A stretch of DNA of 34,809 nt from Candidatus Omnitrophota bacterium (GTDB lineage Bacteria > Omnitrophota > Gorgyraeia > Zapsychrales > Fredricksoniimonadaceae). Below, in pieces: positions 1,517-34,809 of this stretch. How positions within the stretch are numbered: position 1 is the stretch's first letter; each line of letters starts with the position of its first letter. The stretch is from the NCBI GenBank assembly GCA_015232565.1, contig JADFZK010000034.1, forward strand, positions 1-34,809. Direction: 5' to 3'. The position numbers were made by a program, and so were the translations under genes. Under the pieces are notes generated by a model. The model was not told where the DNA came from, searched no databases, and saw only the letters and a program-made list of their open reading frames with translations.

Positions 1517-4500
1517 TTATTTCTGGGCCGGCAAAAGGCTGGGCATTGGCACTATGCCGATTATCAAGCCCTCCACCCCGGTAAAGTTACCCCGGCGAAA
1601 TTCGGCTACCATGGCCGGATCAAAAGACATACTGATGCCGGAACCAGCAGCCTTATCCACCGCCAGCTCCATTTTACGAGCATCCAGCGCAATACCGCCG
1701 GGAGTTACCCCCGCAGCGGGATCATTGGCCGCGGCATCGCCAAAGCTCAGTCTAAAAGACCCGTCTCCTTGATCGGTGAACTTGATCCATACAAACATAT
1801 TATTCACGTTATCGACTCGCGCATCCCCGTCCAGATCTAATTTAGCCTTTGACCAGGCCAGCAATTCTCGCGTCAATAATGCCCGGGCTTCGGCCATTGA
1901 TCGAGCGTAAACCAGGTCATTTGGCTCCCGCTTGTTTAAGAAATCAATTGCTTTGGCCTGAATATCATCATTATCACTTATTGAATTCAGCTTTCCAAGG
2001 TCATACCTAGCCACCCACATACTCACAAAACCAGACACCGCTAATCCACCAACTATTGCGTGAAAAAACTGTGTCAAAAGACCATCACCAAACGAAGCCA
2101 GAAACCCTGCAAAACAAACCATAAAGAGCAGGCCATTATTTAAAATAGTCGTCCGGTATGCCACCGCCTGCGGGCTAGTACTGATCGCTCGCCGCCGTTC
2201 TTCCTCTTCCACGATCTTGTTAATTTCTATAACCGCACGATTAACCGCGATCAATTGGGATTCTGCAGCCATCGGCTTCAGCGTTACACTTCTCAGCGCA
2301 GATTCCGCCAGTTGAGGGTTGGTTCTTAAATCCAACATATTGCTAATAAAACTATCCCTCTCGCCTTCCGGAAGCAACTCCGCGTGTTCGTAAACAGTTG
2401 TTGTCCATTTTTCCACAGGAGTTCTTTGTATAACCTTAAGCCACTTGTCTGCCTCCAACGACATCGAGAAATCGCCTTCCTTCGTAATAACACCTGTTGG
2501 CCGAGCCTTTTTTACCAGCGCCGCTACAATCGCGGCAACCCGCGCTTGATTCTGACCAGACAGACCGCCTAATGTATTAAGAAGCCACCTGACAGCCTCA
2601 GCCTCCTTAAGTATCGCGTCATCTGACGCACCGGATGACGCCGCGGCTTGCCCCGGCACAGTTACTTCGAAAACGCGCGCGCGCGGGGAAGGAAACGGCA
2701 CACCCTTGGGATTAATGATCAGGAACATACGCTCAAAACCCGGGGGTTCACTCTTATAAACCACCGACATAACGTCATAAGCGGAGGCCTCCTGTCCAGT
2801 CACTACATCCGATCTGCTCAAACTCCAACCGGGCGAGTTTGTCACCTGCATAAAACCGGCATTGTTCTCCCTTATCTTGATATCCAGACGCTCAGGAGCC
2901 GCCGGCGTGCCTGGCAGGTCAATACTTAAAGATATTTGTTGGGAAACACGTTTGCTCAAAAAGATCTGGGCGCCGTTAGCCGCAGGAATAGCCATTCTAC
3001 TAACCCGCTCCTCACCTGCAGGAAGATCTTGAGGCGCTTTATATATCTGATTCAAAACCAATACCGCGCACATCAAACTAAAAAACCTTTTGCGCCCGGA
3101 AATGGTCATTGACGCGTCAGGACCGCCGATTAAGAACCTGACTGCGGCCTTTAAACGTCCTGCCAAACCCAAAGAACCCATAAACACTCGCGCAGAGGCC
3201 TGTTCCCCATACAATCCGGAAAAGATCTGCTCAACACATTTTCTGAAGCTGTCCCGAACTTGTTCCTGTGCCGTTTGACGGAATTGAATACGAGTTAATA
3301 CCGTAAAAGCCTCAAACAAAGGCCCAGTCAGAAAACTGGCCGTCAAATCAATTAACTCAGCATTGCCTTTGACAGAATATCCCCCATTAGATACCACCGC
3401 CAACCGGCTTTTTAATAATGCCAGCCCGAAAGGCTCTGACTCATCCAAATAAGCTTTTAAGAATTTGAGAGTCATATCAAGGATTGCGATCCTCTGCTTT
3501 AGCGTATAGTTTGTAAAGAGATTAACCTCTGCCGCTTGAAAAACCCTGGCCAGATCATCCCCCGCTTTGCGTGCATGCAAAGAATTATAATATCCCTCCC
3601 AACTCATTTCCGGAACATTATAGCCCTGTTGCCTGGCATCCTTATTGTATCTTTCCTGATCGTAGGCATACAACGACATCCCCGTTTCCTGAAGCAATAA
3701 ATACTTGTTAAAACGTTCCGCCGACATCGTGCCATTCCCCAGCGTGAACAACCGCACCAGCAATCTAACTGCATTACCCTGCGCCTCACTGGAATCGCCG
3801 GGCGCTTTGCTCTGCGAATGAGCCAGCACATCGGGTATCCCCAGGCAATTAACCAAACCGCCCGAGAAATACTTGCGGGCTATTGATCCCGACTCACCTA
3901 AGCCCGCACTCTCTACCGCGCTGTCGGGGTCGGCCTCTTCTTTGATGTAATTGAACACGCCCCTTTTATAAGCCTGCAAGTACTGTTCATAGATCTTTTC
4001 CTTGATCGCCGGATCGTCCGCCAGCACCCCGGCCGTTTTGTCCTGGTTGCTGTAAACCTGGTTAAGTAACGAGTTCTTTAACGTGGTCTTGTACCAGGTC
4101 GCCAGGATCATGGAATAGAACATCTGGCGCAAAGGGGCAAAGTTACTGCCTTCATTAACTTCTTGCTCGATCATTGGGATCACGATCTCGCGCAGGACGT
4201 TTTTGGCTATGTTGTTCGGGGCGTTTGTTTCGTTTGTGGCGTTTGGCGTTTGGGTTGAGACCTGGGTTGCTTTCACATTCGTTGGTTGGGGGGTTGGCAG
4301 ACGGCGTGGGGACACGAAGCCCCGCTCATTGGTATCCGCTAGCGGGGCATCATGTCCCCTGGTTGGCATTGCGTTGTTAGTCGTTGCTAAATAATCTGTT
4401 TCCAGCATCACTTTTAGATGCGCGCCTACTACATAGGCGGCGTTGCCTTGCTCGAGCACCCGGGCCTTGTCGGCCGAGATCCACACTTTGTTGAAAGTGT

Positions 4501-5038
4501 CTACCGGGATCTCTGCTCCGGCGGCGCCGTACTGCTCGCGCACACGGGCATAAACCCGGGTCCAGAATTCCCGGCCGAGGTCTTTTTCCGGATAAATTAA
4601 CGAGGCAGTCAACTGCTTAAGAATATAATCCTGGGCCAGCATATCGCGCCCCAGTTCGGTTTTGCCCAACTCCTGGGGGATCATCCGGTCGTGCTCAAAA
4701 GGTGAAAGGTTCACCCATTGGTCGTTCTCTTTAACAGTAAGCGAAGCCAGAAAATATTTGATCAATTTCTGCGACTCAGCCCTGAACTCCGCCCCCTCAA
4801 GGCTATAGCCGGACTTGCCGGAATCGATAATGAAATCAAACAGCAAAGGATTGTCCGGATGGATCTCCATGCCTCTCATCAATACCGGCACCTGGGCCGC
4901 ACTCATAGATACCATGGTCCCCGGAGCCGGTAAATTCAGCACACTCTGCGCAAAAGAAGCCGTTGGCCACAACGCTTGCGCGAGCAAAGTAACGATCATA
5001 AAAACTGAAATGATCCGAAAAGAAGAATGACGCTTCAT
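1517..5038 (-). CDS. Large secreted protein of the giant-protein family (1173 aa)
   Basis: Residues 1-30 are a signal peptide ending A-S-F-A before Q31. It is followed by L-P-A-P-G-T-M-V and by I-H-P-D-N-P-L-L-F-D-F, a pattern I associate with large Omnitrophota proteins. The N-terminal module continues to ~400: A-Y-V-V-G-A-H-L-K-V (~200), a linker with the palindrome-encoded insert (~226-254), R-E-I-V-I-P-M-I-E-Q-E-V, L-R-Q-M, and R-K-Y-F-S-G-G. The centre (400-950) is helical and unrecognised, with a hydrophobic stretch near 650. Residues ~960-1010 look like two membrane spans. The last 60 residues (from ~1114, G-G-I-A-L-D, then F-D-P-A-M) match the C-terminus of the giant protein at 26271-34736. 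The ATG at 5038 follows AAGGACTTGGAAT. The second paralog follows 18 bp downstream. The payload-coding part (about 2000-3600) looks more A+T-rich than the N-terminal module. Function unknown; an envelope location is inferred. Confidence 0.9.
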   Translation of the reverse strand: MKRHSSFRIISVFMIVTLLAQALWPTASFAQSVLNLPAPGTMVSMSAAQVPVLMRGMEIHPDNPLLFDFIIDSGKSGYSLEGAEFRAESQKLIKYFLASLTVKENDQWVNLSPFEHDRMIPQELGKTELGRDMLAQDYILKQLTASLIYPEKDLGREFWTRVYARVREQYGAAGAEIPVDTFNKVWISADKARVLEQGNAAYVVGAHLKVMLETDYLATTNNAMPTRGHDAPLADTNERGFVSPRRLPTPQPTNVKATQVSTQTPNATNETNAPNNIAKNVLREIVIPMIEQEVNEGSNFAPLRQMFYSMILATWYKTTLKNSLLNQVYSNQDKTAGVLADDPAIKEKIYEQYLQAYKRGVFNYIKEEADPDSAVESAGLGESGSIARKYFSGGLVNCLGIPDVLAHSQSKAPGDSSEAQGNAVRLLVRLFTLGNGTMSAERFNKYLLLQETGMSLYAYDQERYNKDARQQGYNVPEMSWEGYYNSLHARKAGDDLARVFQAAEVNLFTNYTLKQRIAILDMTLKFLKAYLDESEPFGLALLKSRLAVVSNGGYSVKGNAELIDLTASFLTGPLFEAFTVLTRIQFRQTAQEQVRDSFRKCVEQIFSGLYGEQASARVFMGSLGLAGRLKAAVRFLIGGPDASMTISGRKRFFSLMCAVLVLNQIYKAPQDLPAGEERVSRMAIPAANGAQIFLSKRVSQQISLSIDLPGTPAAPERLDIKIRENNAGFMQVTNSPGWSLSRSDVVTGQEASAYDVMSVVYKSEPPGFERMFLIINPKGVPFPSPRARVFEVTVPGQAAASSGASDDAILKEAEAVRWLLNTLGGLSGQNQARVAAIVAALVKKARPTGVITKEGDFSMSLEADKWLKVIQRTPVEKWTTTVYEHAELLPEGERDSFISNMLDLRTNPQLAESALRSVTLKPMAAESQLIAVNRAVIEINKIVEEEERRRAISTSPQAVAYRTTILNNGLLFMVCFAGFLASFGDGLLTQFFHAIVGGLAVSGFVSMWVARYDLGKLNSISDNDDIQAKAIDFLNKREPNDLVYARSMAEARALLTRELLAWSKAKLDLDGDARVDNVNNMFVWIKFTDQGDGSFRLSFGDAAANDPAAGVTPGGIALDARKMELAVDKAAGSGISMSFDPAMVAEFRRGNFTGVEGLIIGIVPMPSLLPAQK
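4308..4359. repeat. Palindromic element copy B, inside a coding linker
   Basis: Same interrupted palindrome as at 704-757: outer arms GGGGACA (4308-4314) and TGTCCCC (4353-4359), inner arms GCCCCGC (4319-4325) and GCGGGGC (4342-4348), same CGAA/ATCA spacers and a 16-nt loop. It is read in frame and encodes G-H-D-A-P through G-F-V-S-P. The giant paralog at 26271-34736 has no such insert at the matching place. Confidence 0.85.
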
Positions 5039-17573: not shown

Positions 17574-20500
17574 TCATCGGCCCTGTGAAATATATGTACC
17601 CTGATTCCCGGGAACTGTCCCTGTTGTTGCCTGCGCTCCGCTGGTAGTATAGGTGACCGGCAATGCCACACCCAGACCCAAACCAACTTGCACCGAATCC
17701 GGGATCCAGGTACCGGGATTATTCCAGCTGATATCATTCCGCATAGTCACCTGCACACCGCCATATTTACCCATCCAGGGAAAATTAACTCCGATTGTGT
17801 CGCCGGCCTTCTCACCGCAGGATCCGCTTATGTCGCTTAAACCTGCCGAACCGCCAATATCAAAGATCTCGCCATAGACGATCTCCGGCGAAAAACCATT
17901 ACCCTTCAGCCGGGCATCAGGACTTAGCGGATTTCTTAATTCCGAACCCCAGTTACCCCCCACCGCGACACCAGCGGTTACCGGGGCATGCGCGCCTGCA
18001 TTATAAGCGATGCTTAACAACCCCAAAGGGTCGAGGAAATTTACCGGATCATTATGCAGATATAAATATTTGTTGAATCCGTCGGCCATACCGAGCGGGT
18101 CGGGCGTAAGCCAGCGGCCGGTCTCGGGCTCGTAATAACGCGCCCCGAAATAATATAACCCGGCGTAACCTTCCCATTCTTTGGTGGAGAACTTGTAAAC
18201 ATTGCTGCCCGCGATCCCGCTGTGTTTATTATCGCGGCCGAAAGCATCGTAACCATAGTCACCGGTATCATTGCCATTCACATCGGTGATGTCCTGCACG
18301 CCGCCCTGGCAGTCGTAATGAAAATAATAGACTCGCCCTGGATCAGTGGTTTGCGGTTCCGGCGCGGCCGCTACGCCCGCCTGCTCACCACCCGCCGGAG
18401 CCGGAGGGACCGCAGTATTGATCATATTCCTGAAATAAATTATCCCGCCAACACCTCCCGGATAATCCTGACCGCGCACGTAACTGCGGGTCGTGCGCAG
18501 GCTGGCGTTCTTTTCCAGCACCACATTCTGCCCGTCATACAGGAAAGTGGTTTCCTGGCCGTCACGCACGGCTTTGGTACGCCGCCCATCACCTGAATAC
18601 TGGAACGCGGCCGTAATACCGTTGGCCGTCAAGGCGACAAGACGACTTTCCAGATCGTAACCATAAGTACTCACATTGTTGACCGCCGCGCCCACCGTCA
18701 TCACCGTTCTCTGAATACGATTGCCGCGGTCATCGTAATCGTACGCTGTCGTATCCGTAGTGAAAGCATTTCCCTGAACTTCCAGAATGCGGGAATACTG
18801 CAAAAGCTTATTCTCCGCGTCGTAAGTATAGGCCTTCTTTAATACCAACGGCAAGTCAACAGACAGGGCCGGGCCATAACCAGCACTTCTTAACTGAGCT
18901 TGTACCACCGGACTTAATATCCCGGAGTCCTGGCCCCACAACACGTTAACTGTGGTATTCTTTTTAAAACTCACCCGATTACCCGCCGGATCATAGGCAT
19001 ACTCATAATCGTATTTACCGGTATTGGTTTCGCGTACCAACTGGCCTTTGGCATCATAGGTATAGTTTACCGTCTGGGCATTTATTCCCAGCCGGGCTTT
19101 CTTACTGATAAACCCGCCGAGATCATAGGTATACATCTCCTGGTCGATCACCTTGCCGTTCTTCGCATTCACGTTCACCACCGCCAGCACCCGGTTGAGC
19201 AGGTCATAAGTCCGCAAATTACGGATCCGGTTCGGATAATCGATTGACATTACATTCGAATTAAAATCATAGGCATATGTGGTAATTCCGGCCGGGGCCT
19301 TCAGCGAGGTAACCCGGTTCAAGGCATCGTAAACATACGTTGTCCGGTTGCCGTCCTGGTCGGTCGTGCTCAGGCGATTACCTGCCAGGTCATAAGTATA
19401 ACTGATCTTGTAACCGGCCAACGGCCCGGTTTCACCAAGCAACCGACCCAGCGCATCGTACTCATACGTTGTTACTCCCTGGCTGTCGGTCATACTGGTC
19501 TTGCGGCCTAAAGCGTCATATTCATACGCCACCACCTTGCTATCCGGATACGCCACCCTGGTCAGGCGATTCAAAGCGTCGTAAGTATGCACAATAGGCG
19601 CGGCATTGCCAAAAGTCCGGGAAATAATATTGCCTGCCGGATCATAAGTAAAACCCCGGGTACTCCCTAAGGGGGTAGTCTCAACCTGCAAGCGGCCAAC
19701 CGGATCGACCGTACGATAAGTAATCTGGCCTTTCTCATCAGTTAAACTGATGATCCGCCCGGCAGTGTCGTATTCAGTCTGCACCATCCCGCCCAGCGGA
19801 TCGATGGTCTTAACCAAACGCTCATATCCGTCGTAGACATTCGTCGTAACACGCAGTTTCGGGTCGGTTAACCGGATACGGTTCCCCAGGGAGTCGTAGG
19901 CATAGCTCGTAGCCGCGCCATTGGGCGCGGTCATCCTTACCAGCCGGCCAGCGATGTCATAAGAAAACAGGGTCTGTGCGCCCCGGGGATCGATAGCGGC
20001 AAGGACCTTCCCTAATTTATCGTAAGTGAAGCGCCGGGTGCCGCCCAAAGCATTGGCGCTTTGGATCATCTGCCCGTACGAATTATACGTCATAGTGGTT
20101 TTGCGCAATAAGGCATCGGTTATCGACACCAGGTTGCCTTTGCTGTCGTAGGCCAGGCTGGTCCGGGCATTCAGAGGATCGATCACACTGGTTAGATTAC
20201 CCCGGGCATCATAATCGTTGGTCGTAACACCACCTAAAGCATTGGTAGTTGTTTTAAGCAGATTATAATCGCTCGTATATGTGTAACGGGTCACCCGGCC
20301 CAAAGCATCCGTGATCTTCAACAAATTGCCTTTGGCATCGTACTCAAAAGCCGTCCGATTACCATTGGCGTCGATCACCGCGGTCTTGTTCATCTTGCTA
20401 TCCCATTCAGTCCGGGAAGTGTGCCCCAGCGCATCGGTGCGGGAAGTTTCCAGGCCCATGGAGTTGAAGACATACGTAGTCTTGTTCCCCAAAGAATCGG

Positions 20501-21761
20501 TCACTTCGGTAGTGTTGTTATCCTTGAAATCAAGCGTCGCCTTGTTAACATCGCCATCCTGCCAGTTTTGATACGCCCTACCCTGCAGGTCATAGGCATA
20601 ATAGGTTTTGTGCCCGTTGGCATTAGTGATCTGAATGATGTTGTGATCATTATCGTATACATACCGCACAACCCTGCCATCGGGGTAAGTGACAGTGGCC
20701 AGGTTGCAGGAATTCTCATACGTGTAACGGGTCGTACGCCCCAAAGGGTCTATGATCGCCGAAACAAGCTCATCATCATTGAACAGCACCTTGATCCGCT
20801 GGCCGCCCGGATCTTCCAGATACGCGCTTTCGGGCCGGGCAGGATCGTAAATATACCGGAGAGCATTTCCGTTACGATCTTTCATCAAAACCATATCGCC
20901 TTCGGCGTCGTAAACAAAAACATTACCGTTCTTGTCCGTACGGGTAAAAGAGCCGTCCCCATTCTCCACCAGCGTAGAATAATTACCGACCATACTGACA
21001 AAAGAACCGTCGTTATTCCGAAGAAAATGCAAATTAGCACCATTCTCGTCGTTCACCACCGCTCCGCCGTCATCATCAAAATTCAACCACTGATCGTAAG
21101 GCGTCCTCCAGCCATGGCCAAAAAGGCCGTCGTTCCGGCCGGTAGCATAAGTGCGGGTAAGATTAAACAACCCCCCGCCCGGTAAAGGATAAAAAAGATC
21201 GGTAGCCTTGGTGTACATTACACCCGTGGCAATATCGATAGGATCCTGTGTCATGGTCTTCAGACGGTCGGGCACCATCTTGCCTGTTTTAAGGAAAGCC
21301 CCCGCTTCAACAGAATTCGTAGTGCGGCCATCCAAATAAGTAGTGACCGTCAACACATCTCCGGTGGCCAGGGAATAAAACCTGACCCGCACGAATAACT
21401 GCGGAAAACGATCCACCACCTCCTGATGCCATTGCGCCAACCCCACCCGGACAGAAGTGTGGCTGGTTTTTTCTCCAAACGAGATCGGATCACCCGGTTT
21501 GACACCTGATCTTGGATGCGGATTCATATCCAGCGCCACAAAAGTAATACTACTGCTATCCCAATGCCAGTCCACTTGCGGCGGTACTGTTATCGCCCAG
21601 GAATAAGCATATGTGCCCCGATAAACATACTGCCCAACGCTCGGATTCTCCTCATGCTCATCCGAGATCAGCTGAACAGAAAGCGCCGGCAATTCACTTT
21701 GCTGGGCAAAAGCCACCAGCGGCATAATTAGAAACAAGATGAAAATAAGCAGTTTTTTCAC
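17574..21761 (-). CDS. Secreted RHS/YD-repeat protein with unrecognised C-terminal tail
   Basis: A 1395-residue protein with a GTG start at 21761 (GAGG 6 bases upstream) and a signal peptide (1-19, A-F-A before Q). Residues ~20-160 form a unique N-terminal domain; P-I-D-I-A-T-G and D-L-F-Y-P-L-P-G-G-G-L mark the start of the RHS region (~170-200). Dozens of YD repeats follow (Y-D-x-x-G-R/N-x-x-x-x-T-D). The RHS core ends with R-Y-Y-E-P-E-T-G-R-W-L-T-P-D-P-L-G and N-F-L-D-P-L-G-L (~1205-1248), the usual boundary before a variable C-terminal domain. The last ~147 residues are glycine-rich (A-G-V-A-V-G-G-N-W-G, V-G-L-G-L-G-V-A-L-P) with no nuclease or deaminase motif I recognise. RHS proteins form a shell that encloses such tails. 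A Sec signal rather than a PAAR or VgrG domain suggests envelope or surface display. Confidence 0.95.
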   Translation of the reverse strand: MKKLLIFILFLIMPLVAFAQQSELPALSVQLISDEHEENPSVGQYVYRGTYAYSWAITVPPQVDWHWDSSSITFVALDMNPHPRSGVKPGDPISFGEKTSHTSVRVGLAQWHQEVVDRFPQLFVRVRFYSLATGDVLTVTTYLDGRTTNSVEAGAFLKTGKMVPDRLKTMTQDPIDIATGVMYTKATDLFYPLPGGGLFNLTRTYATGRNDGLFGHGWRTPYDQWLNFDDDGGAVVNDENGANLHFLRNNDGSFVSMVGNYSTLVENGDGSFTRTDKNGNVFVYDAEGDMVLMKDRNGNALRYIYDPARPESAYLEDPGGQRIKVLFNDDELVSAIIDPLGRTTRYTYENSCNLATVTYPDGRVVRYVYDNDHNIIQITNANGHKTYYAYDLQGRAYQNWQDGDVNKATLDFKDNNTTEVTDSLGNKTTYVFNSMGLETSRTDALGHTSRTEWDSKMNKTAVIDANGNRTAFEYDAKGNLLKITDALGRVTRYTYTSDYNLLKTTTNALGGVTTNDYDARGNLTSVIDPLNARTSLAYDSKGNLVSITDALLRKTTMTYNSYGQMIQSANALGGTRRFTYDKLGKVLAAIDPRGAQTLFSYDIAGRLVRMTAPNGAATSYAYDSLGNRIRLTDPKLRVTTNVYDGYERLVKTIDPLGGMVQTEYDTAGRIISLTDEKGQITYRTVDPVGRLQVETTPLGSTRGFTYDPAGNIISRTFGNAAPIVHTYDALNRLTRVAYPDSKVVAYEYDALGRKTSMTDSQGVTTYEYDALGRLLGETGPLAGYKISYTYDLAGNRLSTTDQDGNRTTYVYDALNRVTSLKAPAGITTYAYDFNSNVMSIDYPNRIRNLRTYDLLNRVLAVVNVNAKNGKVIDQEMYTYDLGGFISKKARLGINAQTVNYTYDAKGQLVRETNTGKYDYEYAYDPAGNRVSFKKNTTVNVLWGQDSGILSPVVQAQLRSAGYGPALSVDLPLVLKKAYTYDAENKLLQYSRILEVQGNAFTTDTTAYDYDDRGNRIQRTVMTVGAAVNNVSTYGYDLESRLVALTANGITAAFQYSGDGRRTKAVRDGQETTFLYDGQNVVLEKNASLRTTRSYVRGQDYPGGVGGIIYFRNMINTAVPPAPAGGEQAGVAAAPEPQTTDPGRVYYFHYDCQGGVQDITDVNGNDTGDYGYDAFGRDNKHSGIAGSNVYKFSTKEWEGYAGLYYFGARYYEPETGRWLTPDPLGMADGFNKYLYLHNDPVNFLDPLGLLSIAYNAGAHAPVTAGVAVGGNWGSELRNPLSPDARLKGNGFSPEIVYGEIFDIGGSAGLSDISGSCGEKAGDTIGVNFPWMGKYGGVQVTMRNDISWNNPGTWIPDSVQVGLGLGVALPVTYTTSGAQATTGTVPGNQGTYISQGR

Positions 21762-24632: not shown

Positions 24633-26123
24633 TCATGCCCCAAGGCTTTGACGTCCCTTATCGGTCGTCAGGTATCTCTGCCGGGGACTCTTGGGCTTTT
24701 CCGGAATCGTCAGCGCAATCAATCCTTCATCCACAAGGGGAGATACATAATCTTTGAAAACATAAACGCGATTTCTCAAACCCAAATGCTCCATAATTTC
24801 TTTAAACGAGCGTGGTTCAACACAAAACTTGACTACAGCAGACTTGTGTGGTGCTTGTGTGGTGCTTGTGTGATACTTGTGTGGTTCTTGTGCAGTTGAC
24901 GATTTCCCGGGCTTGGTAAGGGGAAATATCACCTCGAACATATTAACCGGCTTGTCATCCTGAAATACTGGCTTGCCGTACCCCATGCTCATCCAGCCCT
25001 TGGTAATTTTCTCAATACCAGAACCCGAGCGGTCTGCCCAACCCAGCAAACGAAAGACCTTAGCGATAACCGGATTTCGCGGCTCGGTCAAATGCTGTTC
25101 AATACGATCAATCGAGAATCTCAAACACCCGGCATTGCGAAAAAGGATTCGGTCGTCATAACATTTCACCACCGCGCCCTTCGCGTCAAAAAAATCCATA
25201 TGCATCAAAAGATTAACCAAAGCCTCGCGCGCGGCCTGTACTGACGGCGGATCATCATTGCGAGTGTATCCGTCTGCTTTCAAAGCAAACGGCACGGGGA
25301 TGCGCTTTCTTAACCTGTCGTAAATTTGCACATACGTCTGAATAATGCCCTGCTCCGAACTGTACCGTTCGACCCAACGCGTCTGGACATCCTCACCATG
25401 CTTGGCCGGTATAACCAAGAAATCAATAAAATAAGACGGGAACTGGTTCAATATCCTGAGCTCCTTGCCAAACAGCAAAAGCCCAGCCGCAGTCAGGCAA
25501 TGCTTTTTCTTCTTGGTCCCATCAATCGCCTGCAGTCCAAGAAGCATTTCAATTTTTCCACAACGGGTAAACGGATGGTCCGGGTGTTCCAATTTCAGAA
25601 TATTCCTGAACATCTCAATGGCTTCGTTGTCCAGGTCTTCGATATCAAAATCCTCCAGCCGCATGCTGTCGCTGGTTTTCTCGCTGGCCTCACGCAACAT
25701 ACGCTCAACTTCGGATCTGGACGCCTTCTGCGTGCTGGCCGCCAAGCGCACGAATGTATTCCGAATGTCCCCGCCAAAGTAAACCGGCTTGGCCTGGCGC
25801 GGCATTTCTTCAATGCGGAACACCAAAACCACCTTGCCGTCAATGCGATGAATGTCTCCTTTGGAGGACAGCGGAATATTAAACTTCTCGCCGCGCAGAA
25901 GCGAAATAAAGTCATTCTGAATCTTATCGGGATTCTCGACACCGCCAATGACAAACTTTCCACTGGTTTCTTTTACACCAAACACAACATAACCACCGAT
26001 GGTGTTGGCAAACGCCGAGATCGTCTTGGCAATGTCGTCAGGAAGCGCCACACGGGCTTCCTTGGCTTCAAAATCATCCCATTCAATTCCGGATAAGCGC
26101 TTTAACAACTGATCTTTGTTCAT
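24633..26123 (-). CDS. AlbA_2 (Schlafen-like) domain plus GHKL-type ATPase and winged-helix protein
   Basis: A 496-residue protein of the group often annotated as ATP-binding protein or transcriptional regulator. Residues ~13-130 are an AlbA_2 domain (F-E-A-K-E-A-R, I-S-A-F-A-N-T-I-G-G-Y-V-V-F-G-V). Residues ~290-390 resemble HATPase_c_4 (R-E-A-L-V-N-L-L-M-H-M-D-F-F; the usual H-R-D-Y reads H-M-D-F here; later N-P-V-I-A-K-V-F and G-W-A-D-R-S-G-S-G-I). The last ~65 residues look like a winged helix (P-R-S-F-K-E-I-M-E-H-L-G). The linker at ~408-427 (T-Q-A-P-H-K and similar) comes from an 11-bp tandem repeat. GAGGG lies about 9 bases before the ATG. Related proteins occur in defence islands and as stress regulators; its role here is open. 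Confidence 0.87.
   Translation of the reverse strand: MNKDQLLKRLSGIEWDDFEAKEARVALPDDIAKTISAFANTIGGYVVFGVKETSGKFVIGGVENPDKIQNDFISLLRGEKFNIPLSSKGDIHRIDGKVVLVFRIEEMPRQAKPVYFGGDIRNTFVRLAASTQKASRSEVERMLREASEKTSDSMRLEDFDIEDLDNEAIEMFRNILKLEHPDHPFTRCGKIEMLLGLQAIDGTKKKKHCLTAAGLLLFGKELRILNQFPSYFIDFLVIPAKHGEDVQTRWVERYSSEQGIIQTYVQIYDRLRKRIPVPFALKADGYTRNDDPPSVQAAREALVNLLMHMDFFDAKGAVVKCYDDRILFRNAGCLRFSIDRIEQHLTEPRNPVIAKVFRLLGWADRSGSGIEKITKGWMSMGYGKPVFQDDKPVNMFEVIFPLTKPGKSSTAQEPHKYHTSTTQAPHKSAVVKFCVEPRSFKEIMEHLGLRNRVYVFKDYVSPLVDEGLIALTIPEKPKSPRQRYLTTDKGRQSLGA
24843..24897. repeat. 11-bp tandem repeat, five units, inside a coding region
   Basis: Five consecutive 11-bp units starting CTTGTG: two identical (CTTGTGTGGTG), then three with 2-4 changes. 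The period is not a multiple of three, so the units are read in rotating frames on the minus strand, and gain or loss of one unit would shift the frame of the downstream winged-helix part. Confidence 0.9.
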
Positions 26124-26270: not shown

Positions 26271-29200
26271 CTAGCGAGCGACAGCCACTTTATCCGCGCT
26301 GTCGTTCAGTCCTAAGAACTTCTGCACGCTACTTACTGAATGTATATCAATGATGACTGGCGTGAAACCCCGGGCATTTCGTATCTGCTCCAGCAATGCC
26401 GGATCGATATTAAAGCGCATACCCTGTCCGTCACCGAGACCGCCCTGGACCATCATTTCCATATTTTCAGGATTAAAGTCAATACCACCCGGGTTCTGCG
26501 CACTATCTGTGCCAGAGGATTGCCCATTGATTATAAAACGGCCAACGCGAACCTCTACCCCTTCCAAACGCCCTGTCTTCAGAAAGTCCGAGTATTGCTT
26601 TTCGGTCATAACAGCAGAAACACGATCCCCGGTTCCTGATCTTAATATCTCAAACTTAAATCGTCCGCGGTCCCCAAACCCGGTCTTCTTAACCTCACCT
26701 TTACAGCCAGATTCTGATGAAGTCACATTGCTTTTGCCAATAACAAGTTCAGTCCCCAAAGATTTCCAGTATTTATAAAACACCTGCGGCTCAAAATCCC
26801 ATGGTATCCTCTGCTCAACTGTCTCGACATAACTGGCGCGAATATCCTCCAACATCGGTCTGGCATGTACCGGCGCATCGATGTCTTTTCGCTTGGAGAA
26901 TTTTTGAGGAAGCCCCTCGTAATTCATCATTTTCGTCGGATCCCTAAGCGCTTCCCTCTCCTCGTCCGTCAGCGTCGCTAAGAAATGATCCGTCATATTA
27001 ACAGCAAAGGCTCTAACTCTGGAATCAGAAATACTCAAATAATCCGCATAAGGGCGCTGGCCGAGCAACTCTTGCTGCATAACCCTGCGCGTTAATTCAG
27101 TAATAATTAGATCCCGTTGGATTATCTGACGATAATTTACGAAAACGTACTCATCTTTACTATGCAATAACCCAAGGACATAATCATCCTGCTTAGTGTG
27201 AGAAACAGGCGGCAAATGGAAGTATTCCATGGCAAGCTTGATGTGAAGAAATGTATTAAGAGCTTTTTGAAAATCCTGCCTATTCTCTTCATTCCAATTA
27301 TTATCACGAGACAGGCTTTCCATAATTTCTTCTGGCAAGATAGCCGAGAATTCGGAAATAACACCTTCCTTGGCATTGTCTCCCTGACGTGCGTAAATCG
27401 TCTGTTTTGGGATATCTATTTCGGCTGGCAGCGACTTGGCTGGCACATCAGTTTGTACTTCTTTCGGCGGTGCCAACATTTCATTAACAGCGTCCATATT
27501 ACGAAGAAGTTCTTCGCTCATTGCTTTAGCCGACCGATTTTTCTGAAGCCAGGCACCCGGCTTTTTCGCAAAGTCCATCAGTTTTTCGGCCGTTCGTCTT
27601 GCCATATCTTGTGCTTCTTGCTGATATGCTTTTAAAAGAACCTGTGATTGACTGCGAAAGACTTGCCAATATTGTTCCTTGCTCAAGCCAAGCTCTCCCT
27701 CAAAAACCTCCAAAGTCTTCAGCCCCTGCCACACCGTGGTCGGAAAAAGCCAGCTTGAAGTAGTTAAAGTCTTAACAACCGTCGTGAAAAGAGCCGCTTG
27801 GCCAATACGAACCTGTCCGATAACCCGCGAAATCGCCAAGAGTGTTTGCTGGATATCAAGCTTCTTATCGAAGATCGCTCTTATGGCTGTAACCTTATCA
27901 TCACGTAAATCGGCCAATAACTGTGCTGAACCATCCTGTGCGCTGGCCCCCTCTCCCAAAAGTATCCCTTCTACACCACGCCAAACCTCATCCGCATCCT
28001 CAAGAATCGCACCTTTAAGAAATTGTTTTACTCCCTCACGCTCTTGAGCAGACTTCAGTTCAAAAATCAAACCGAAATCAATAGGGAAAATTTTATCCCC
28101 AATAAGAACATTGCGTTTATGGAAATCCGCATGCCCCTTACCATCGACAAAAAGCATATAGAGGAGCATCCGTCTCAAACGCTCTATAATATCGCCATCC
28201 ACCCCGAGCAAACGAGAAAACTTATCAGCCGCCCGACCGGGTGCCAACTCCTGAATGATAACGTCAGTCTTATCACCGACATAGATCTTTGGAACATGCA
28301 GAGATAATTTTGAATTAGCAGGAGGGAAATTCTGTTCGAAGCGAGCAACAACCTCTTCGATGATCGCACCATTCCTGGCTTCATTGCGAAGATCTGCTTC
28401 TGTGTCGATCCAATCCCTGGCGTCAGTTTCAATATAACTGTATTCCACACCGCACTCCTGGAGAGCCTTATGCAAAGCCTGTAAATCTTGCGCAAGCAAG
28501 CGCTTAATATTAGGGCGGATGACCTTAAATACAACTTTTTTCCACTCACCATTGATTCTCAATTCTCCCTCGAAAACAACCCCTATAGACGCCGCGCCTT
28601 TCATGTCACCAATGCGAACGTCACCCAGACTAATGCCAGACCTGGCCAGAATATCGACCAAGACCATCTTGTCGATGCCGCCAGCTTCGGATTTAAGTGA
28701 GCCAAGGTCATTGCGAACCTCTGAACTGCTGATCAATGTGTAATTTTCCGAGAGGACTTGTCCAATTTTGATACCGATCGGCCCCATCGCCTTCAACATC
28801 TCACCAAGTCGCTGGCCTTCTCTCATATTCTTGACATAGCGAAATTCCGTGAGAAGACTCAGCACAATTTCGGTTCGGCGGGCAGGCGGATATTCTTTAA
28901 GTGCCACTATAAATATCTGCTTGATCTTATCATATTCCTTTTGTGTGAAACTTTGCCGTCCGCTCGCCAGTTCACTCTCACTTCTAGGCGGAAAGAACTG
29001 TTCAAAGAGCCGTAAATACAGCTGGTCTGACACCACGGTTCCCCCGGTTTCCCGCGTTGAGAAAATCCCGTTCTCACCTAAAAAGAGCCGCTCGAGAAGT
29101 TTTCGCCTTAATGTCACCGGTAGAATCTGCACATGTTCTGGCATATGCTCAAAGAGAAATCCCTTCAAATTATGAATCGCTTGTAAACTGGCTGGCTGAG

Positions 29201-32200
29201 GATAAGTGTCTGGATCAAGCAGCCATAATAAGAAATCAACGCGACTTTCCCGACCAATTGCCGTCGCTACAGACATAATAAGATCTTCAAATGCATTGAC
29301 CTTGGTCATTTCCGGGTGATATCGCATTCCCTCTTGATCGCTCAGCAAACGGCGAACCTGCTCCACTTTCTCAAATGACACGAAACCTTCGCCCAACCTG
29401 TGATGATTAAGGATCGCCTGCAATTCACTATCGCGTTCTGATGAAGCCAACGGGAAGAATTCCTGCACAGCCTTGAGTTCATTCTCAAAAGAAGCTTCGG
29501 GATTAAGTTCTCGATAGATCTTTATCGCTGTAGCACCCATTCGCAACTGCTTCTGAGGTTCCCAGACAAGATTGATCGCTCGGCGATAAAAACGCAATGC
29601 TTCCCTGGCCCTTCGCTCACTCAATCCCAATGGTATCGAATTACCATTTACATCCTTTGCTGTTAGTTTCTCCCACTGCAAAGGTGTCAATATAGCCGCA
29701 ATGCGGAACGAGCGATAATCACCAAGCGGAATACCCTCCTTCATTAGCCACGCCTTGTAAGCAATCGGGAAATCCATTGGTGGAACCAAATCACGCTCCC
29801 ATGTGTCCAGAAACCCATCGCGGAACAATGACCCCTCAGAAAGAAACCCTAAAAGAGCATTAAGCCTGTCCTCGATAGGGCGAGATGACCGCAAAAGTGT
29901 CTTCCCATCCTTGTCATATTCCATAAGAAGCTGCCCGCGTGGGCCCGAAATATCAAAATTTCTGACGAGCGCCTCTAAATAATCCCGTTCTTTCCTGGAA
30001 TCCTTATCTTCTTTAGTCTCTATCTTGATCTCATTCATCCAACTCACATACATTCCAAAAAGTTGTCTCCCATAACGAGATGCCTGAAAAATATTCTTTG
30101 CTACTTTATCCGTAAAATCTGAATGGCCAATAAGCCCACAACGATTAACCGTCTCGAGAAAAGCGATCAGACGACCCTTTCCTAGCACATTCCATGAGAA
30201 AAAACTTTCCAGCATCCTGGCTACGGTTTCTTCATAATCCAGGCTAATCTCTTCGGTAGTATCAACACTCCCGTCCTCTCTTCGCGCAACTTCAATACAT
30301 GCCTTTACAAGTCCAGCTTTCATATCCGAGGAGACTTTGTCCCTGTTACTCTGCACAGTTTCAAGAGACCGGACCAAGATCAAACTATCAATCAGGTTTT
30401 GTCCCTGCTTGGCTGCGCCGCGCACAGAAACACGCCCAGACGGAAATTTGTCTGACTCATTATTATCACGCTGAACTTGAGATAGACTATGAAGTTGATC
30501 AAGGTTAAAATCAAAAAGACGCCGAAACACAGCCGTATCCAACTGCCCAATCTCTGCTAGCATAACTTTATTGCCTAAGACTCCCCCATGCAGTACGGTA
30601 TCCGGCAACTTCAAAGTTTCAACCTTTCCGGTCGTCCTCACACGGTTAACCGCCGCAACGACCGATCCCTTTTCTTCGACAAGCCCCTCTGCTGTCTCAA
30701 GAGATACTGATTCTCTATGTTGAACGACAAAGTCCATTTGCCAATGAGGAGCGATTCGGGAAAGGATTTCAAAGGCCGTGTCCGTATTTACACTCCGCTT
30801 AGCCAGATCCTCTAGCTGTTGACGGCTAGCCCCTTCAAGAGCAACACCCGACTCAACCTGCATCTGGTCCCTTATCTCTGCAAGACGTAACCCAACATAT
30901 CCTTTAATTATATTCTCCGGCAGATACCACCCATGCCCGGGCTTATTGTCCATCACCCATTCGCAAAGCTCTTTTAGCCTTCTCCTGGAATCCCGGTCCA
31001 TCGAGTAAAGTAACGCCGGCTGATCCCCGGCCTGAAACCACTGCCCGTCACCATCATGATCAAAAAACTGATTCAGATATCTCATAAATATTTCATGAAC
31101 ATCCACTGGATGCGAAAAGATCCGATTCAGCATCTCAAACATACGCTGTGGATCAATGCGCTTAACGAGAAAATTCTTCCGGTACTCGTCGCCCTCTCCC
31201 ACACCAGGCTCAACATGAACATTCGACAGCGCATCGTTAAGAATTTCTTTCCGAAATAGGAGAGTGTAAGACCGCAGCTCATTTTCAATAGATGAAAGAC
31301 AGGCCGGCCAGTCATCACTGCTCGTCAGCACCCCCTGAAGAACGTCAAACATCTTTTTTGTTTGTTCGATATCTTCTCGACGGCTCTTCGGCATGAGAGT
31401 CCCATAGTTTTCTTCCAATAAAAGCCTGTTCAGCCAAGCCACATCATCGGCATCAACATCTTTGCCTTCTTCCAAACGGGAAATAACACCAGCCATTTCC
31501 GGTGTTCGCTTCTGCATAGTCTTTTCCCTGAACAAATCCCTATTCCTTAAAAGTTTATAAAGATTTTGTTCCGGGACCTGGATCCCGTCACGCTCTAGTA
31601 CAGACACCAGGTCTTCCCACCGCAGGGAAGCTTCCCGAAATTGAACCCAAAGAGAAACAGTATGGTTAACAAGACTACCTCTTGCCGGGAGATCAATCGA
31701 AAATCTGCTAACGTTGCCATTTAGCGCTCTAAATTTCTCCAGGATGCGACCGTGACGGTCGATGTAACCCTTGGCAATCAACTCCCTTAACGGATCTTTA
31801 ACAAATAGTCCTGCCTTATTAAACATCTCGAATGTTGCGACCCGGTCGATCATCTTCTCGAGTCTATTGATCGCTGGCTTTGTTTTACCGGCAAGCTCTT
31901 CTGCAACGCGATCTTCAGGTATCCCTTGAAACTGAGCCCCTATTTGAGGTGAACCATACTCCCTCATAAAGATCGAGTTAAAGAATGATCCTCCCCTAGC
32001 CCTAAGCAGCCTCAGGAAACGAGGATCGACTCCATCATAAAGCTTGGAATTCCTACTATCATTGTATCTATTTTCTGCGTTCTCAATCAACACGCTCTCA
32101 GAAAATATGATTTTGAACACTGCTCTCGACAGCCACTTGAATCCATTGTTCAGAACATCCGCCGGAATTTCCTGTCCTGTTGAATCTTGCATAATGGGGT

Positions 32201-34736
32201 TTTGCTCTCTCACCCGATTCAAGCCATCACGCAAGGCCTTAACAATTTCTCTTTTCAACTTACCCTGATCATTCCGGTACTGGCCATTCACGTTCCCGAC
32301 TCTCGATAAAACCAAAGCCTCCAAAAGACGCCTCCGTCCTTCTTCGTCATCTAATGACCATAAACGGATATCCTGCTCATAGAAATTGGAGTCAGACCTT
32401 TCCAACCGTGCAGTCCCAATCTCGCCTGATACATCACCAAACACATCATGAAGAAACGATAAATGCCCGAACTCGGCCATAGCCTCCTGGTCAATAGTTT
32501 TCCTGCCGAAACGCTTAAACACAGAATAGGGCACGGCCACAAGAGAGTTGTAAATGTCATCATAGCTATTATTCTGAGGTTCCCTCTCCCGAGCAGACTG
32601 CAATAAGTTAGTCCACTCTGAAAGACGCTCAAGGCCGGGTTGCGCCAAGACCAAAATAGAATCCCCACTGAACGTATGTTCTACAACAAATTTCTCCGCA
32701 TCTCTTAAAAAAATACGCAGTTTCCGAAGGAGTTGGGTCTTTTCCTCAAGCGACAGTCGGAGTCCTCCAATACGGCTCATCACCGTCTCCCACAAGGTTT
32801 TAAATGCTTTGCTCCGGTCCCATTCTTCAGCTTTAAGCATCTCCTGAAACACTTTATCACTAGACTGCACTTCAATCTCATCAAGATGTTGATCACGCCA
32901 TAAACGCTGACTTAATAAATGCGGTGATGAATTCGCAGTATAGAGATCAGCTGCTAATTTCTCATTTGAAACTTTAACCTTGCTAAACTCATCCAACCAA
33001 TCATTCACAAAATCTCGCACATTGGCCATATAAACATCACGTCCGAATGCCTGTCGAACTGGCGCCTGGCGGGCAGTAACAACGCGCCCTAATACCTGGG
33101 AATCTTTCATATATTTCAATAACCGAAATCCCTCCATCCACTTATCCATACTCGATGCATTTCTGATCAACTTCAATACATCCGGTAAAGAATGTACCTG
33201 AGTAACCTCTTCACCTGAATGGCGGTATGTCCAATTTACAAATGAATCCACATTCTTAATAATGCCGGGATCAGCACCATGACCACGCAAGTCGAATGGG
33301 CGACCATAGTAAATCTCAAGATACGTCTCTCTATCTTTAGGATGTGGATGATCATTCAAACTGGTCTCTGAAGTAGATGTAGGATCAAACCGCTTTAGAA
33401 AACGGATCCCTGTCAACATTGCTTCGGGAGGATAGCCAGCTAACCCTAAGCCGATCATGCCGTGAATGTCCGCATCTCGCTCGGCCTTGCGTTTTAACTC
33501 TGTCACTTCCTGACGGAAGGCGCCCTGCAGATTCGGCCAGTCGATCCCTTCAAAAGATGTTTCGACCATGATATGGCGCATCTCATGGAATATAATGCCT
33601 CCAATTGCGGCCTCCGAAAAAACCTCGCCGTTTTCTTTCTGACAATACAGTGCCAATGCCCGCAGTAAACCAAGAGTAATGTAAACGTCATGATAGCCAG
33701 GCAAGACAAAGGCATTGACCTCGGGACTATCAATGATAAACAGCTTTCCTTTAAAAGCAGGCTTGCCGCGTTCCTGCGCCAACCTGTCGTAAGCGCCTTT
33801 CATACGGTTAAAAACCTTGTACACAAGATTTGCCTGTTCACTTGAATTTTCGGGCACAAAACCATCATTGATCAAATGCTGATAATGAATCTTCTGGAAG
33901 ACCTGATCCCGTTCCTTCCATATCTCTTCAAGTGTCTTATCCTTCTGATGTTTAAGAAGAAGCTGGAGTGCCAGATTACCTTCTTTGTCTGTCCGGGGTG
34001 TCATAGCACCCGGGCCATCAATGCGGAAGGCATTGCCTCCAATATCCATTGGTGATGAGGTCGGCATTTTCAGCCGCGCAGGATCGCTTGAACTTTGATC
34101 AAGTTCATTTCCAGCTGGTATATCGTCAACCGGCACAGGCGTCTCATTCATCCCCAGGACATTCAATGTCTGATCACTGGCTCCAATATTCAAGATTATC
34201 TTCGAGCCATCATTTGTAACTGCATCCAAAGAAGAACGAATGACCGCAACATTCCCACCGCCCATTCCCACAGGAAAACTTTGTGTTACAGTCATGACCT
34301 TCGCGGCCTTCTGGGCAAAATCCATTCCACCAGAGAAATACTTCCGCGGGATAATCTCGCCGGTCAAAGCGTCAGGCTCCTCTTTGATGTAGTTATACGC
34401 GCCCTTTTTGAATGCTGCAACGTACTGCGCCCAGATCTGTTCTGCTTCTTTTGGATCTTGAATATTGATACCCGAGACTTTATTGTGATCAACGTAAACC
34501 TGGCTCAAAATACTTTGCTTGATATTCTTCTTGAACCACGTCGACAATATTAGCGACTGATAAACCTGCCTTAATGCGGTGAAATTTTTCCCTTCGTTGA
34601 CTTCCTTCTGTATCTCAGGAATAACAATTTCACGTATCACGCTCCTGGCGAGTTCTTGCGATTCATTGCTTGTCGTTTCTGAAGATACTGTATTCTGCTG
34701 CAGTGCCATATAATCGCTTTCCAACATGACCTTCAA
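26271..34736 (-). CDS. Giant protein (>2,800 aa) with M48-like metallopeptidase and UbiB/ABC1 kinase domains, 5' end cut by an IS
   Basis: The 2821 codons given here start at a TTG that is not a natural start: paralogs carry ~200 more residues with a signal peptide, and homology (Y-I-I-E-S-R-L-K-V) runs upstream to ~34754, where IS sequence begins. Residues ~31-137 are the family N-terminal module, ending R-K-Y-F-S-G-G. At 341-470 is an M48-like gluzincin: N-A-F-V-L-P-G, H-E-M-R-H (384-388, zinc-binding HExxH), E-R-D-A-D (419-423, third ligand region) and D-H-P-H-P-K-D-R. About 1,400 helical residues follow without recognised motifs. At ~1975-2225 is a UbiB/ABC1 atypical kinase: I-K-I-G-Q, V-V-F-K-V-I-R-P, E-A-D-L-R-N-E, H-A-D-F-H-K-R-N and D-F-G. 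The last ~70 residues are the G-G-I C-terminal module shared with the 1173-aa protein. Normally secreted, by paralog; in this form it may be non-functional or cytoplasmic. Confidence 0.88.
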   Translation of the reverse strand: MKVMLESDYMALQQNTVSSETTSNESQELARSVIREIVIPEIQKEVNEGKNFTALRQVYQSLILSTWFKKNIKQSILSQVYVDHNKVSGINIQDPKEAEQIWAQYVAAFKKGAYNYIKEEPDALTGEIIPRKYFSGGMDFAQKAAKVMTVTQSFPVGMGGGNVAVIRSSLDAVTNDGSKIILNIGASDQTLNVLGMNETPVPVDDIPAGNELDQSSSDPARLKMPTSSPMDIGGNAFRIDGPGAMTPRTDKEGNLALQLLLKHQKDKTLEEIWKERDQVFQKIHYQHLINDGFVPENSSEQANLVYKVFNRMKGAYDRLAQERGKPAFKGKLFIIDSPEVNAFVLPGYHDVYITLGLLRALALYCQKENGEVFSEAAIGGIIFHEMRHIMVETSFEGIDWPNLQGAFRQEVTELKRKAERDADIHGMIGLGLAGYPPEAMLTGIRFLKRFDPTSTSETSLNDHPHPKDRETYLEIYYGRPFDLRGHGADPGIIKNVDSFVNWTYRHSGEEVTQVHSLPDVLKLIRNASSMDKWMEGFRLLKYMKDSQVLGRVVTARQAPVRQAFGRDVYMANVRDFVNDWLDEFSKVKVSNEKLAADLYTANSSPHLLSQRLWRDQHLDEIEVQSSDKVFQEMLKAEEWDRSKAFKTLWETVMSRIGGLRLSLEEKTQLLRKLRIFLRDAEKFVVEHTFSGDSILVLAQPGLERLSEWTNLLQSAREREPQNNSYDDIYNSLVAVPYSVFKRFGRKTIDQEAMAEFGHLSFLHDVFGDVSGEIGTARLERSDSNFYEQDIRLWSLDDEEGRRRLLEALVLSRVGNVNGQYRNDQGKLKREIVKALRDGLNRVREQNPIMQDSTGQEIPADVLNNGFKWLSRAVFKIIFSESVLIENAENRYNDSRNSKLYDGVDPRFLRLLRARGGSFFNSIFMREYGSPQIGAQFQGIPEDRVAEELAGKTKPAINRLEKMIDRVATFEMFNKAGLFVKDPLRELIAKGYIDRHGRILEKFRALNGNVSRFSIDLPARGSLVNHTVSLWVQFREASLRWEDLVSVLERDGIQVPEQNLYKLLRNRDLFREKTMQKRTPEMAGVISRLEEGKDVDADDVAWLNRLLLEENYGTLMPKSRREDIEQTKKMFDVLQGVLTSSDDWPACLSSIENELRSYTLLFRKEILNDALSNVHVEPGVGEGDEYRKNFLVKRIDPQRMFEMLNRIFSHPVDVHEIFMRYLNQFFDHDGDGQWFQAGDQPALLYSMDRDSRRRLKELCEWVMDNKPGHGWYLPENIIKGYVGLRLAEIRDQMQVESGVALEGASRQQLEDLAKRSVNTDTAFEILSRIAPHWQMDFVVQHRESVSLETAEGLVEEKGSVVAAVNRVRTTGKVETLKLPDTVLHGGVLGNKVMLAEIGQLDTAVFRRLFDFNLDQLHSLSQVQRDNNESDKFPSGRVSVRGAAKQGQNLIDSLILVRSLETVQSNRDKVSSDMKAGLVKACIEVARREDGSVDTTEEISLDYEETVARMLESFFSWNVLGKGRLIAFLETVNRCGLIGHSDFTDKVAKNIFQASRYGRQLFGMYVSWMNEIKIETKEDKDSRKERDYLEALVRNFDISGPRGQLLMEYDKDGKTLLRSSRPIEDRLNALLGFLSEGSLFRDGFLDTWERDLVPPMDFPIAYKAWLMKEGIPLGDYRSFRIAAILTPLQWEKLTAKDVNGNSIPLGLSERRAREALRFYRRAINLVWEPQKQLRMGATAIKIYRELNPEASFENELKAVQEFFPLASSERDSELQAILNHHRLGEGFVSFEKVEQVRRLLSDQEGMRYHPEMTKVNAFEDLIMSVATAIGRESRVDFLLWLLDPDTYPQPASLQAIHNLKGFLFEHMPEHVQILPVTLRRKLLERLFLGENGIFSTRETGGTVVSDQLYLRLFEQFFPPRSESELASGRQSFTQKEYDKIKQIFIVALKEYPPARRTEIVLSLLTEFRYVKNMREGQRLGEMLKAMGPIGIKIGQVLSENYTLISSSEVRNDLGSLKSEAGGIDKMVLVDILARSGISLGDVRIGDMKGAASIGVVFEGELRINGEWKKVVFKVIRPNIKRLLAQDLQALHKALQECGVEYSYIETDARDWIDTEADLRNEARNGAIIEEVVARFEQNFPPANSKLSLHVPKIYVGDKTDVIIQELAPGRAADKFSRLLGVDGDIIERLRRMLLYMLFVDGKGHADFHKRNVLIGDKIFPIDFGLIFELKSAQEREGVKQFLKGAILEDADEVWRGVEGILLGEGASAQDGSAQLLADLRDDKVTAIRAIFDKKLDIQQTLLAISRVIGQVRIGQAALFTTVVKTLTTSSWLFPTTVWQGLKTLEVFEGELGLSKEQYWQVFRSQSQVLLKAYQQEAQDMARRTAEKLMDFAKKPGAWLQKNRSAKAMSEELLRNMDAVNEMLAPPKEVQTDVPAKSLPAEIDIPKQTIYARQGDNAKEGVISEFSAILPEEIMESLSRDNNWNEENRQDFQKALNTFLHIKLAMEYFHLPPVSHTKQDDYVLGLLHSKDEYVFVNYRQIIQRDLIITELTRRVMQQELLGQRPYADYLSISDSRVRAFAVNMTDHFLATLTDEEREALRDPTKMMNYEGLPQKFSKRKDIDAPVHARPMLEDIRASYVETVEQRIPWDFEPQVFYKYWKSLGTELVIGKSNVTSSESGCKGEVKKTGFGDRGRFKFEILRSGTGDRVSAVMTEKQYSDFLKTGRLEGVEVRVGRFIINGQSSGTDSAQNPGGIDFNPENMEMMVQGGLGDGQGMRFNIDPALLEQIRNARGFTPVIIDIHSVSSVQKFLGLNDSADKVAVAR

Positions 34737-34754
34737 ACGACTTTCAATGATATA

Positions 34755-34809
34755 TGCGTATTCCGGTCAACTTCGCTCACCCATTCCGATGAACCTCGCT
34801 CACCCATTC
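34755..34809. mobile_element. Terminus of an IS21-like insertion sequence (partial, runs off right edge)
   Basis: From 34755 the plus strand reads TGCGTATTCCGGTCAAC, the kind of terminus (TG... with T-T-C-C-G-G motifs) I know from IS21-family elements. It is followed by 23-bp tandem repeats at 34761-34783 and 34784-34806, which differ at few positions (T-T-C-C-G, then C-G-C-T-C-A-C-C-C-A), and the start of a third. Such repeated terminal sites bind the IstA transposase in IS21 elements. The element interrupts the giant gene; an in-frame stop lies at 34767-34769. No transposase gene is inside the window. Confidence 0.65.
34761..34806. repeat. Two 23-bp tandem repeats at the IS end
   Basis: Units 34761-34783 and 34784-34806 share T-T-C-C-G at the start, A-A-C in the middle and C-G-C-T-C-A-C-C-C-A at the end; the third unit is cut by the window edge. 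Confidence 0.8.

What the first reader, a model, noticed from the sequence alone, without database searches (positions are those of the whole stretch)
26271..34736. M48-like metallopeptidase and UbiB/ABC1 kinase fused in one giant protein
HExxH with N-A-F-x-L-P-G and a downstream E/D ligand region marks an M48-like peptidase; I-K-I-G-Q, an invariant-Lys strand, H-A-D-F-H-x-x-N and D-F-G mark an ABC1-type kinase. Both catalytic sets look complete. M48 and UbiB enzymes are normally separate membrane-associated proteins. Their fusion in a protein whose paralogs are secreted is unusual, since a kinase outside the cytoplasm would need an ATP source.
Basis: partly seen in the sequence, partly recalled or inferred. 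Interest (0 to 1): 0.75.

Follow-up and report, generated by a model that had tools for sequence, protein, structure and literature searches.

The report
Exported giant protease–UbiB kinase fusion protein
In uncultured Omnitrophota bacteria a protein-cutting M48 enzyme and a UbiB-type kinase are joined in one giant, apparently exported protein; the same pair, without an export signal, occurs in Patescibacteria, so this is an ancient two-enzyme machine that I found no published description of.

Summary
ORF 26271-34736(-) (2,821 aa, Omnitrophota MAG) carries an M48 peptidase domain (aa 271-494) and an ABC1/UbiB kinase domain (aa 1969-2258), both with complete catalytic sets. M48 is too divergent for Pfam in this protein, but homologues hit PF01435 and PF03109 in the same ORF, and profile and fold searches find BepA/3c37 and COQ8A.

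The fusion is conserved: 22 further ORFs in 21 Omnitrophota genomes (12 families) and 4 Patescibacteria proteins have M48, then ~1,000-1,500 aa, then kinase, always in that order; elsewhere the two are adjacent ORFs. M48 and kinase trees agree (r=0.91).

Two corrections. The TTG start is not real: the gene is cut at the contig end by a mobile-element-like repeat; homologues have a Sec-type signal peptide and ~200 more residues. And export is not inherent: Patescibacteria versions (~1,800-1,965 aa, essentially the core alone) lack signal peptides.

Most likely reading: a two-enzyme machine (M48, predicted helical linker, UbiB-type ATPase) acting on proteins or lipids at a membrane, secondarily exported as part of the giant surface or effector proteins of Omnitrophota. 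Domain identity is near certain; function is inferred (~0.35). I found no description in the open papers searched.

The parts
26271..34736 (-). Open reading frame of the giant fusion protein, 2,821 aa as listed (frame open to 34766; true 5' end missing)
34755..34809 (-). Mobile-element-like repeat end (23-bp tandem units, terminus ...GACCGGAATACGCA) at which the contig stops and the gene is cut
   Evidence: same 28-mer at 11 places, all at contig ends; the 8 copies read are identical up to ...ACGCA and then diverge
34317..34736 (-). C-terminal part of the exported-protein N-module (aa 1-140), shared with ~58 paralogues; signal peptide and first ~200 aa missing
33255..33926 (-). M48-type metallopeptidase domain, aa 271-494
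33573..33587 (-). HEMRH zinc motif (H384, E385, H388)
   Evidence: conserved in 29-30 of 31 sequences
33459..33485 (-). AERDADIHG: third zinc ligand E419 and D423
   Evidence: 28/28 each
33330..33356 (-). NDHPHPKDR: M48 'HP....R' motif (H463, P464, R469)
   Evidence: 24/27 and 28/29
29550..33254 (-). Linker, aa 495-1729; M48-to-kinase distance 1,019-1,521 aa in all fused Omnitrophota relatives
   Evidence: its fold was not predicted as a whole
28848..29549 (-). Conserved helical pre-kinase domain, aa 1730-1963
27963..28832 (-). ABC1/UbiB kinase domain, aa 1969-2258 (KIGQ 1990-1993, ATP Lys2071, E2113/E2119, D2204, N2209, D2220)
26277..26603 (-). C-terminal domain, aa 2712-2820, shared with ~25 paralogues and several fused orthologues

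Best explanation
The protein is an exported giant enzyme built on a conserved core: a soluble M48 zinc peptidase at the N side, a ~1,000-1,500 aa linker that is helical where modelled, and a catalytically complete ABC1/UbiB-type kinase/ATPase at the C side. The core is an ancient two-enzyme machine, cytoplasmic by its lack of a signal peptide in Patescibacteria. In Omnitrophota it was joined to a Sec signal peptide, a lineage-wide N-module and C-terminal sorting-type domain, and in some lineages further variable domains. Most likely (inferred) the UbiB-type domain binds ATP and works on lipids or membrane-bound clients, as COQ8 is proposed to do, while the M48 domain cuts membrane-associated proteins brought to it by the linker. 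In Omnitrophota this would act at the cell surface or in a partner cell. Shown: domains, catalytic residues, order, conservation, co-inheritance, signal peptides by rule. Inferred: ATP use, substrates, coupling, site of action.
For: Both domains in one ORF by Pfam in relatives. 22 fused Omnitrophota ORFs, fixed order, gap 1,019-1,521 aa. Overlapping adjacent ORFs in L132 and L215. Invariant catalytic residues. M48 and kinase trees congruent, r=0.91, 0 of 2,000 permutations. M48 profile hits periplasmic-type M48 3c37 (2e-13) and BepA (2.6e-7), and fold search gives the same. Kinase profile hits 5yjz and COQ8A/ADCK3; fold search gives COQ8A first, target-normalised TM 0.69. Signal peptides. In plants an M48 protease (PGM48) and ABC1 kinases share the plastoglobule lipid surface (PMC3635846, PMC9725166), a precedent for the pairing.
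Against: No biochemical data. No ATP is expected outside the cytoplasm, and an ATP/ADP translocase (PF03219) is absent from the window's genus and not clearly enriched among fusion carriers (6 of 26 against 44 of 384, P=0.06). The linker has no recognised domain. The rule-based signal-peptide scan is not SignalP. Tree congruence shows joint inheritance, not joint function.
Confidence: 0.4

Rival explanations
1. Self-processing giant: the M48 domain cuts the polyprotein after export and releases the kinase as a separate effector that works in the ATP-rich cytoplasm of a prey or host cell.
For: Giant Omnitrophota ORFs are linked to predation or symbiosis (PMC10066038), and release by a metallopeptidase has been proposed for other predator toxins (PMC12419801). 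Split adjacent ORFs show that the halves can be separate polypeptides. Sister giants also carry cofactor-dependent domains such as PPDK_N, methyltransferase and GNAT.
Against: Patescibacteria versions have no signal peptide and consist of little beyond the core. The M48-kinase distance is held at ~1-1.5 kaa with a conserved pre-kinase domain, which suggests a working unit rather than a cleavable string. No delivery system was tested.
Confidence: 0.25
2. Envelope quality-control protein: a BepA-like peptidase whose kinase domain is a nucleotide-free lipid sensor.
For: The nearest solved M48 relatives are 3c37 and BepA; BepA works in the periplasm (established knowledge). No ATP is expected there.
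Against: The ATP lysine, catalytic aspartate, asparagine and DFG aspartate are kept in 30-34 of 33-34 sequences, which a pseudokinase would not need.
Confidence: 0.15
3. Cytoplasmic UbiB-like enzyme; the apparent signal peptides do not lead to export.
For: Patescibacteria versions lack signal peptides; UbiB proteins normally face an ATP-containing compartment.
Against: 14 Omnitrophota ORFs show positive n-region, hydrophobic core and A-x-A-type site. The window's two complete N-module paralogues that reach their start also begin with such a sequence.
Confidence: 0.12
4. The gene in this particular genome is a decaying copy, cut by a mobile element; only the relatives are functional. (Compatible with any of the functional readings above.)
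For: The contig ends in a repeat found at 11 contig ends, inside the N-module. A second M48-ABC1 copy on C39 is already interrupted by a transposase-like ORF.
Against: 2,821 codons remain open with intact catalytic residues; metagenome assemblies break at repeats whether or not every cell carries the insertion.
Confidence: 0.35

Closest known systems
UbiB/ABC1 (COQ8A/ADCK3, Rv3197) atypical kinases, PF03109
   Same: Kinase fold, KxGQ-type N motif, A-rich loop, Lys/Glu/HxDxHxxN/DFG set
   Different: C-terminal part of a giant, mostly exported protein; TIGR01982 score 83 against a cut-off of 488, so not a UbiB orthologue; fused to M48
M48 peptidases of the BepA/3c37 type, PF01435
   Same: NAF strand, HExxH, ExxAD ligand region, HP-x4-R; soluble type without membrane helices
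   Different: Fused to a kinase through ~1.1 kaa; no TPR domain found as in BepA
Giant ORFs of Omnitrophota (PMC10066038)
   Same: Phylum, unusually large size, predicted extracytoplasmic
   Different: Those (over 20 kb) are described as having few annotated domains; this defines a recurring enzymatic core, some of it inside such giants (up to 12,257 aa)
Plastoglobule PGM48 plus ABC1K pair (PMC3635846, PMC9725166)
   Same: An M48 protease and ABC1 kinases on one lipid surface
   Different: Separate proteins, in plastids; resemblance of pairing only, homology of the pairing not tested

Membership tests
M48 peptidase (PF01435) | HExxH zinc motif with downstream Glu ligand | tested here: met
   H384, E385, H388, E419 conserved in 28-30 of the sequences
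M48 peptidase (PF01435) | Family profile match | tested here: met
   Not in the window protein alone, but in co-linear homologues and by profile against 3c37 and BepA
M48 peptidase (PF01435) | M48 fold | tested here: met
   Model core pLDDT mostly 75-92; top fold hits 3c37 and BepA, prob 1.00, though target-normalised TM only 0.51 and 0.31
M48 peptidase (PF01435) | Zinc-dependent peptidase activity | not testable with these tools
   needs protein
ABC1/UbiB kinase (PF03109) | Family profile over cut-off | tested here: met
   76.6 bits against 22.9
ABC1/UbiB kinase (PF03109) | KxGQ motif, ATP Lys, Glu, catalytic Asp, DFG | tested here: met
   some relatives have K-x-A/S-Q or Q in place of the K
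UbiB equivalog (TIGR01982) | Curated cut-off 487.55 bits | tested here: not met
   83.1 bits
ABC1/UbiB kinase (PF03109) | ATP binding or hydrolysis | not testable with these tools
   needs protein
Sec-exported protein | N-terminal signal peptide | tested here: inconclusive
   Missing from the window copy (contig end); present by rule in 14 M48-bearing Omnitrophota relatives

The most novel reading that the evidence does not exclude
An ancient M48 peptidase-helical linker-UbiB kinase machine, shared by Omnitrophota and Patescibacteria, that was turned in Omnitrophota into an exported, ATP-using enzyme acting at or inside partner cells.
Probability: 0.3. Interest if true: 0.8.

Novelty: new variant of a known kind. 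Interest (0 to 1): 0.62.

Why it matters
UbiB-family kinases are ancient and widespread, yet their substrate is still debated. A physical link to a protease, kept across two phyla of uncultured bacteria and co-inherited as a unit, points to shared clients and gives a small testable construct (~1,800 aa Patescibacteria versions). It also gives an enzymatic core to giant Omnitrophota proteins whose functions are described as unclear, and raises the question of how kinase-type enzymes work outside the cytoplasm.

Tried and rejected
Pfam M48 on the window protein alone: no hit; solved by using relatives. A first 9-sequence alignment was too variable for the collection scan. phmmer of the kinase region alone against PDB found nothing useful; the profile did. 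ATP/ADP translocase as a general ATP-related trait: absent from the genus, not clearly enriched among carriers. Defence-system library: only a marginal hit, E=0.004, to one candidate family in the N-module. No recurring neighbour gene was evident by eye in the Patescibacteria loci. Pfam of 12 paralogues found mostly nothing, apart from PPDK_N in two. Chance fusion or misassembly rejected: 26 further fused ORFs in many genomes. Literature searches found no description of the fusion; bioRxiv is not held, so the giant-gene preprint 10.1101/2023.11.21.568195 could not be read.

Full report
What is there. The frame 26271-34736(-) is open for 2,821 codons. Pfam finds ABC1 (PF03109, E=2.1e-21, aa 2047-2251) and nothing significant for M48. 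The UbiB equivalog model TIGR01982 matches at 83 bits, far under its cut-off of 487.55, so this is an ABC1-family kinase but not a UbiB orthologue.

M48. Homologues found in whole genomes of the same phylum that align with the window protein over the HExxH region hit PF01435 in their own right, in the same ORF as PF03109: 4,092 aa (2.6e-9 and 1.9e-24), 2,963 aa, 2,753 aa, 2,178 aa and 3,272 aa. A profile of the M48 region from 6 sequences finds solved M48 peptidases: 3c37 at 2e-13 and BepA at 2.6e-7. The AlphaFold model of aa 250-700 is confident only in the core (pLDDT mostly 75-92; mean 59.8), and its first four fold hits are 3c37 and three BepA chains. H384, E385, H388, E419, D423 and the HP-x4-R motif are conserved in the aligned family.

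Kinase. The model of aa 1700-2420 has mean pLDDT 81.8. The best fold matches are COQ8A chains (target-normalised TM 0.62-0.69), then Rv3197 and its mycobacterial relative MSMEG_1954; the profile gives 5yjz 2.6e-45 and ADCK3/COQ8A 1.4e-26. The KxGQ-type motif, A-rich loop, ATP lysine (K2071), Glu (E2113/E2119), catalytic D2204, N2209 and D2220 are kept. The domain before the kinase is predicted all-helical; the rest of the linker was not modelled.

Conservation of the fusion. Named homologues are Candidatus Omnitrophota MAGs. In 384 genomes of the phylum, 42 match the pre-kinase profile; about 26 of these have it in large ORFs and the rest are ordinary 555-597-aa UbiB-like proteins. With family profiles, 22 ORFs besides the window's hold M48 and then the kinase, in 21 genomes of 12 families, with 1,019-1,521 aa between them. 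In L193, L195 and L197 the two are in adjacent overlapping ORFs. The window sequences were part of these profiles, so their own E-values are by construction; the Pfam and BLAST evidence is independent. Trees of the two domains agree (27 shared tips, Pearson r=0.91, none of 2,000 permutations as high).

Second phylum. L132, from a MAG titled Patescibacteria, has the M48 protein (PF01435 7e-11) in an ORF whose end overlaps the start of the kinase ORF (PF03109 4e-22). A search of 380 genomes of that genome's phylum gave four fused proteins of ~1,800-1,965 aa and another split pair (L215); Pfam confirms both domains in L214, L216 and L217 and in the two L215 ORFs, while L218 rests on weaker profile matches. 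None begins with a signal-peptide-like sequence by eye. These proteins are essentially the core alone.

Export. Full-length Omnitrophota relatives begin with a signal-peptide-like N-terminus; those closest to the window protein then carry a ~350-aa N-module. A rule-based scan M48-bearing ORFs positive and 6 of 63 background ORFs; three more look positive by eye but lack a Met or run off the end. The window's genome has about 58 paralogues of the N-module, with varied middles; among 12 scanned, two carry a PPDK_N ATP-binding domain. Giant relatives also carry methyltransferase and GNAT domains. Cofactor-dependent enzymes in exported giants are thus a recurring pattern, not a peculiarity of this kinase.

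The 5' end. Codons upstream of the listed TTG continue to match paralogues (AYIIESRLKVMLE against AYVVESRLKVMLE) up to window ~34754. There a 23-bp tandem repeat starts; its 28-mer occurs 11 times in the genome, always at contig ends, and the 8 copies read are identical to ...GACCGGAATACGCA and then diverge. This is how the end of a mobile element looks. The gene is therefore cut by an element or by the assembly at it; the missing 5' part was not found.

Mechanism. I favour a membrane-surface machine: the UbiB-type domain handles lipid or membrane-bound clients with ATP, the M48 domain cuts proteins. The plant plastoglobule, where PGM48 and ABC1 kinases share a lipid surface, is a precedent for the pairing, not a test. 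The self-processing effector reading is the main rival. The ATP source in Omnitrophota is unexplained; a translocase of the PF03219 type is absent from the genus (positive control within the phylum).

Verdict. A real and, as far as the open literature searched shows, undescribed domain architecture made of known families; hence a new variant of a known kind. Domain identity ~0.95, function ~0.35.

Noticed in passing
whole genome G000; window 2-1498 and 1517-5038: About 58 paralogues share an N-module (with a signal peptide where the 5' end is readable, as in the two in the window) and have varied middles; ~25 also share a C-terminal ~75-aa domain. Two carry PPDK_N ATP-binding domains (L088, L111).
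   Followed up: partly
window 34755-34809: Mobile-element-like terminus with 23-bp tandem repeats, present at 11 contig ends of this genome.
   Followed up: partly
L054 33-3125 (contig C39): A second M48-ABC1 gene of another subgroup (71-82% identical to G001) whose middle is replaced by a transposase-like ORF.
   Followed up: partly
L183, L186, L188, L191, L199: Giants of other Omnitrophota families share a different domain after the signal peptide ('IQDAHxxxxAQ...lEG'), with no Pfam match at E 0.01 in the three scanned (L183, L191, L199).
   Followed up: no
window 24633-26123: AlbA_2/HATPase_c_4/Fic-like_C regulator-type gene with an 11-bp tandem repeat (24843-24892) inside its coding region.
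   Followed up: no
window 17574-21761: RHS/YD-repeat protein of 1,395 aa with an RHS-associated core near its C terminus.
   Followed up: no
contig ends of G000 (e.g. C9, C12, C31, C34, C39, C60, C63): Many contigs begin or end at the same codon (~110) of the N-module, so near-identical DNA there probably breaks the assembly.
   Followed up: no
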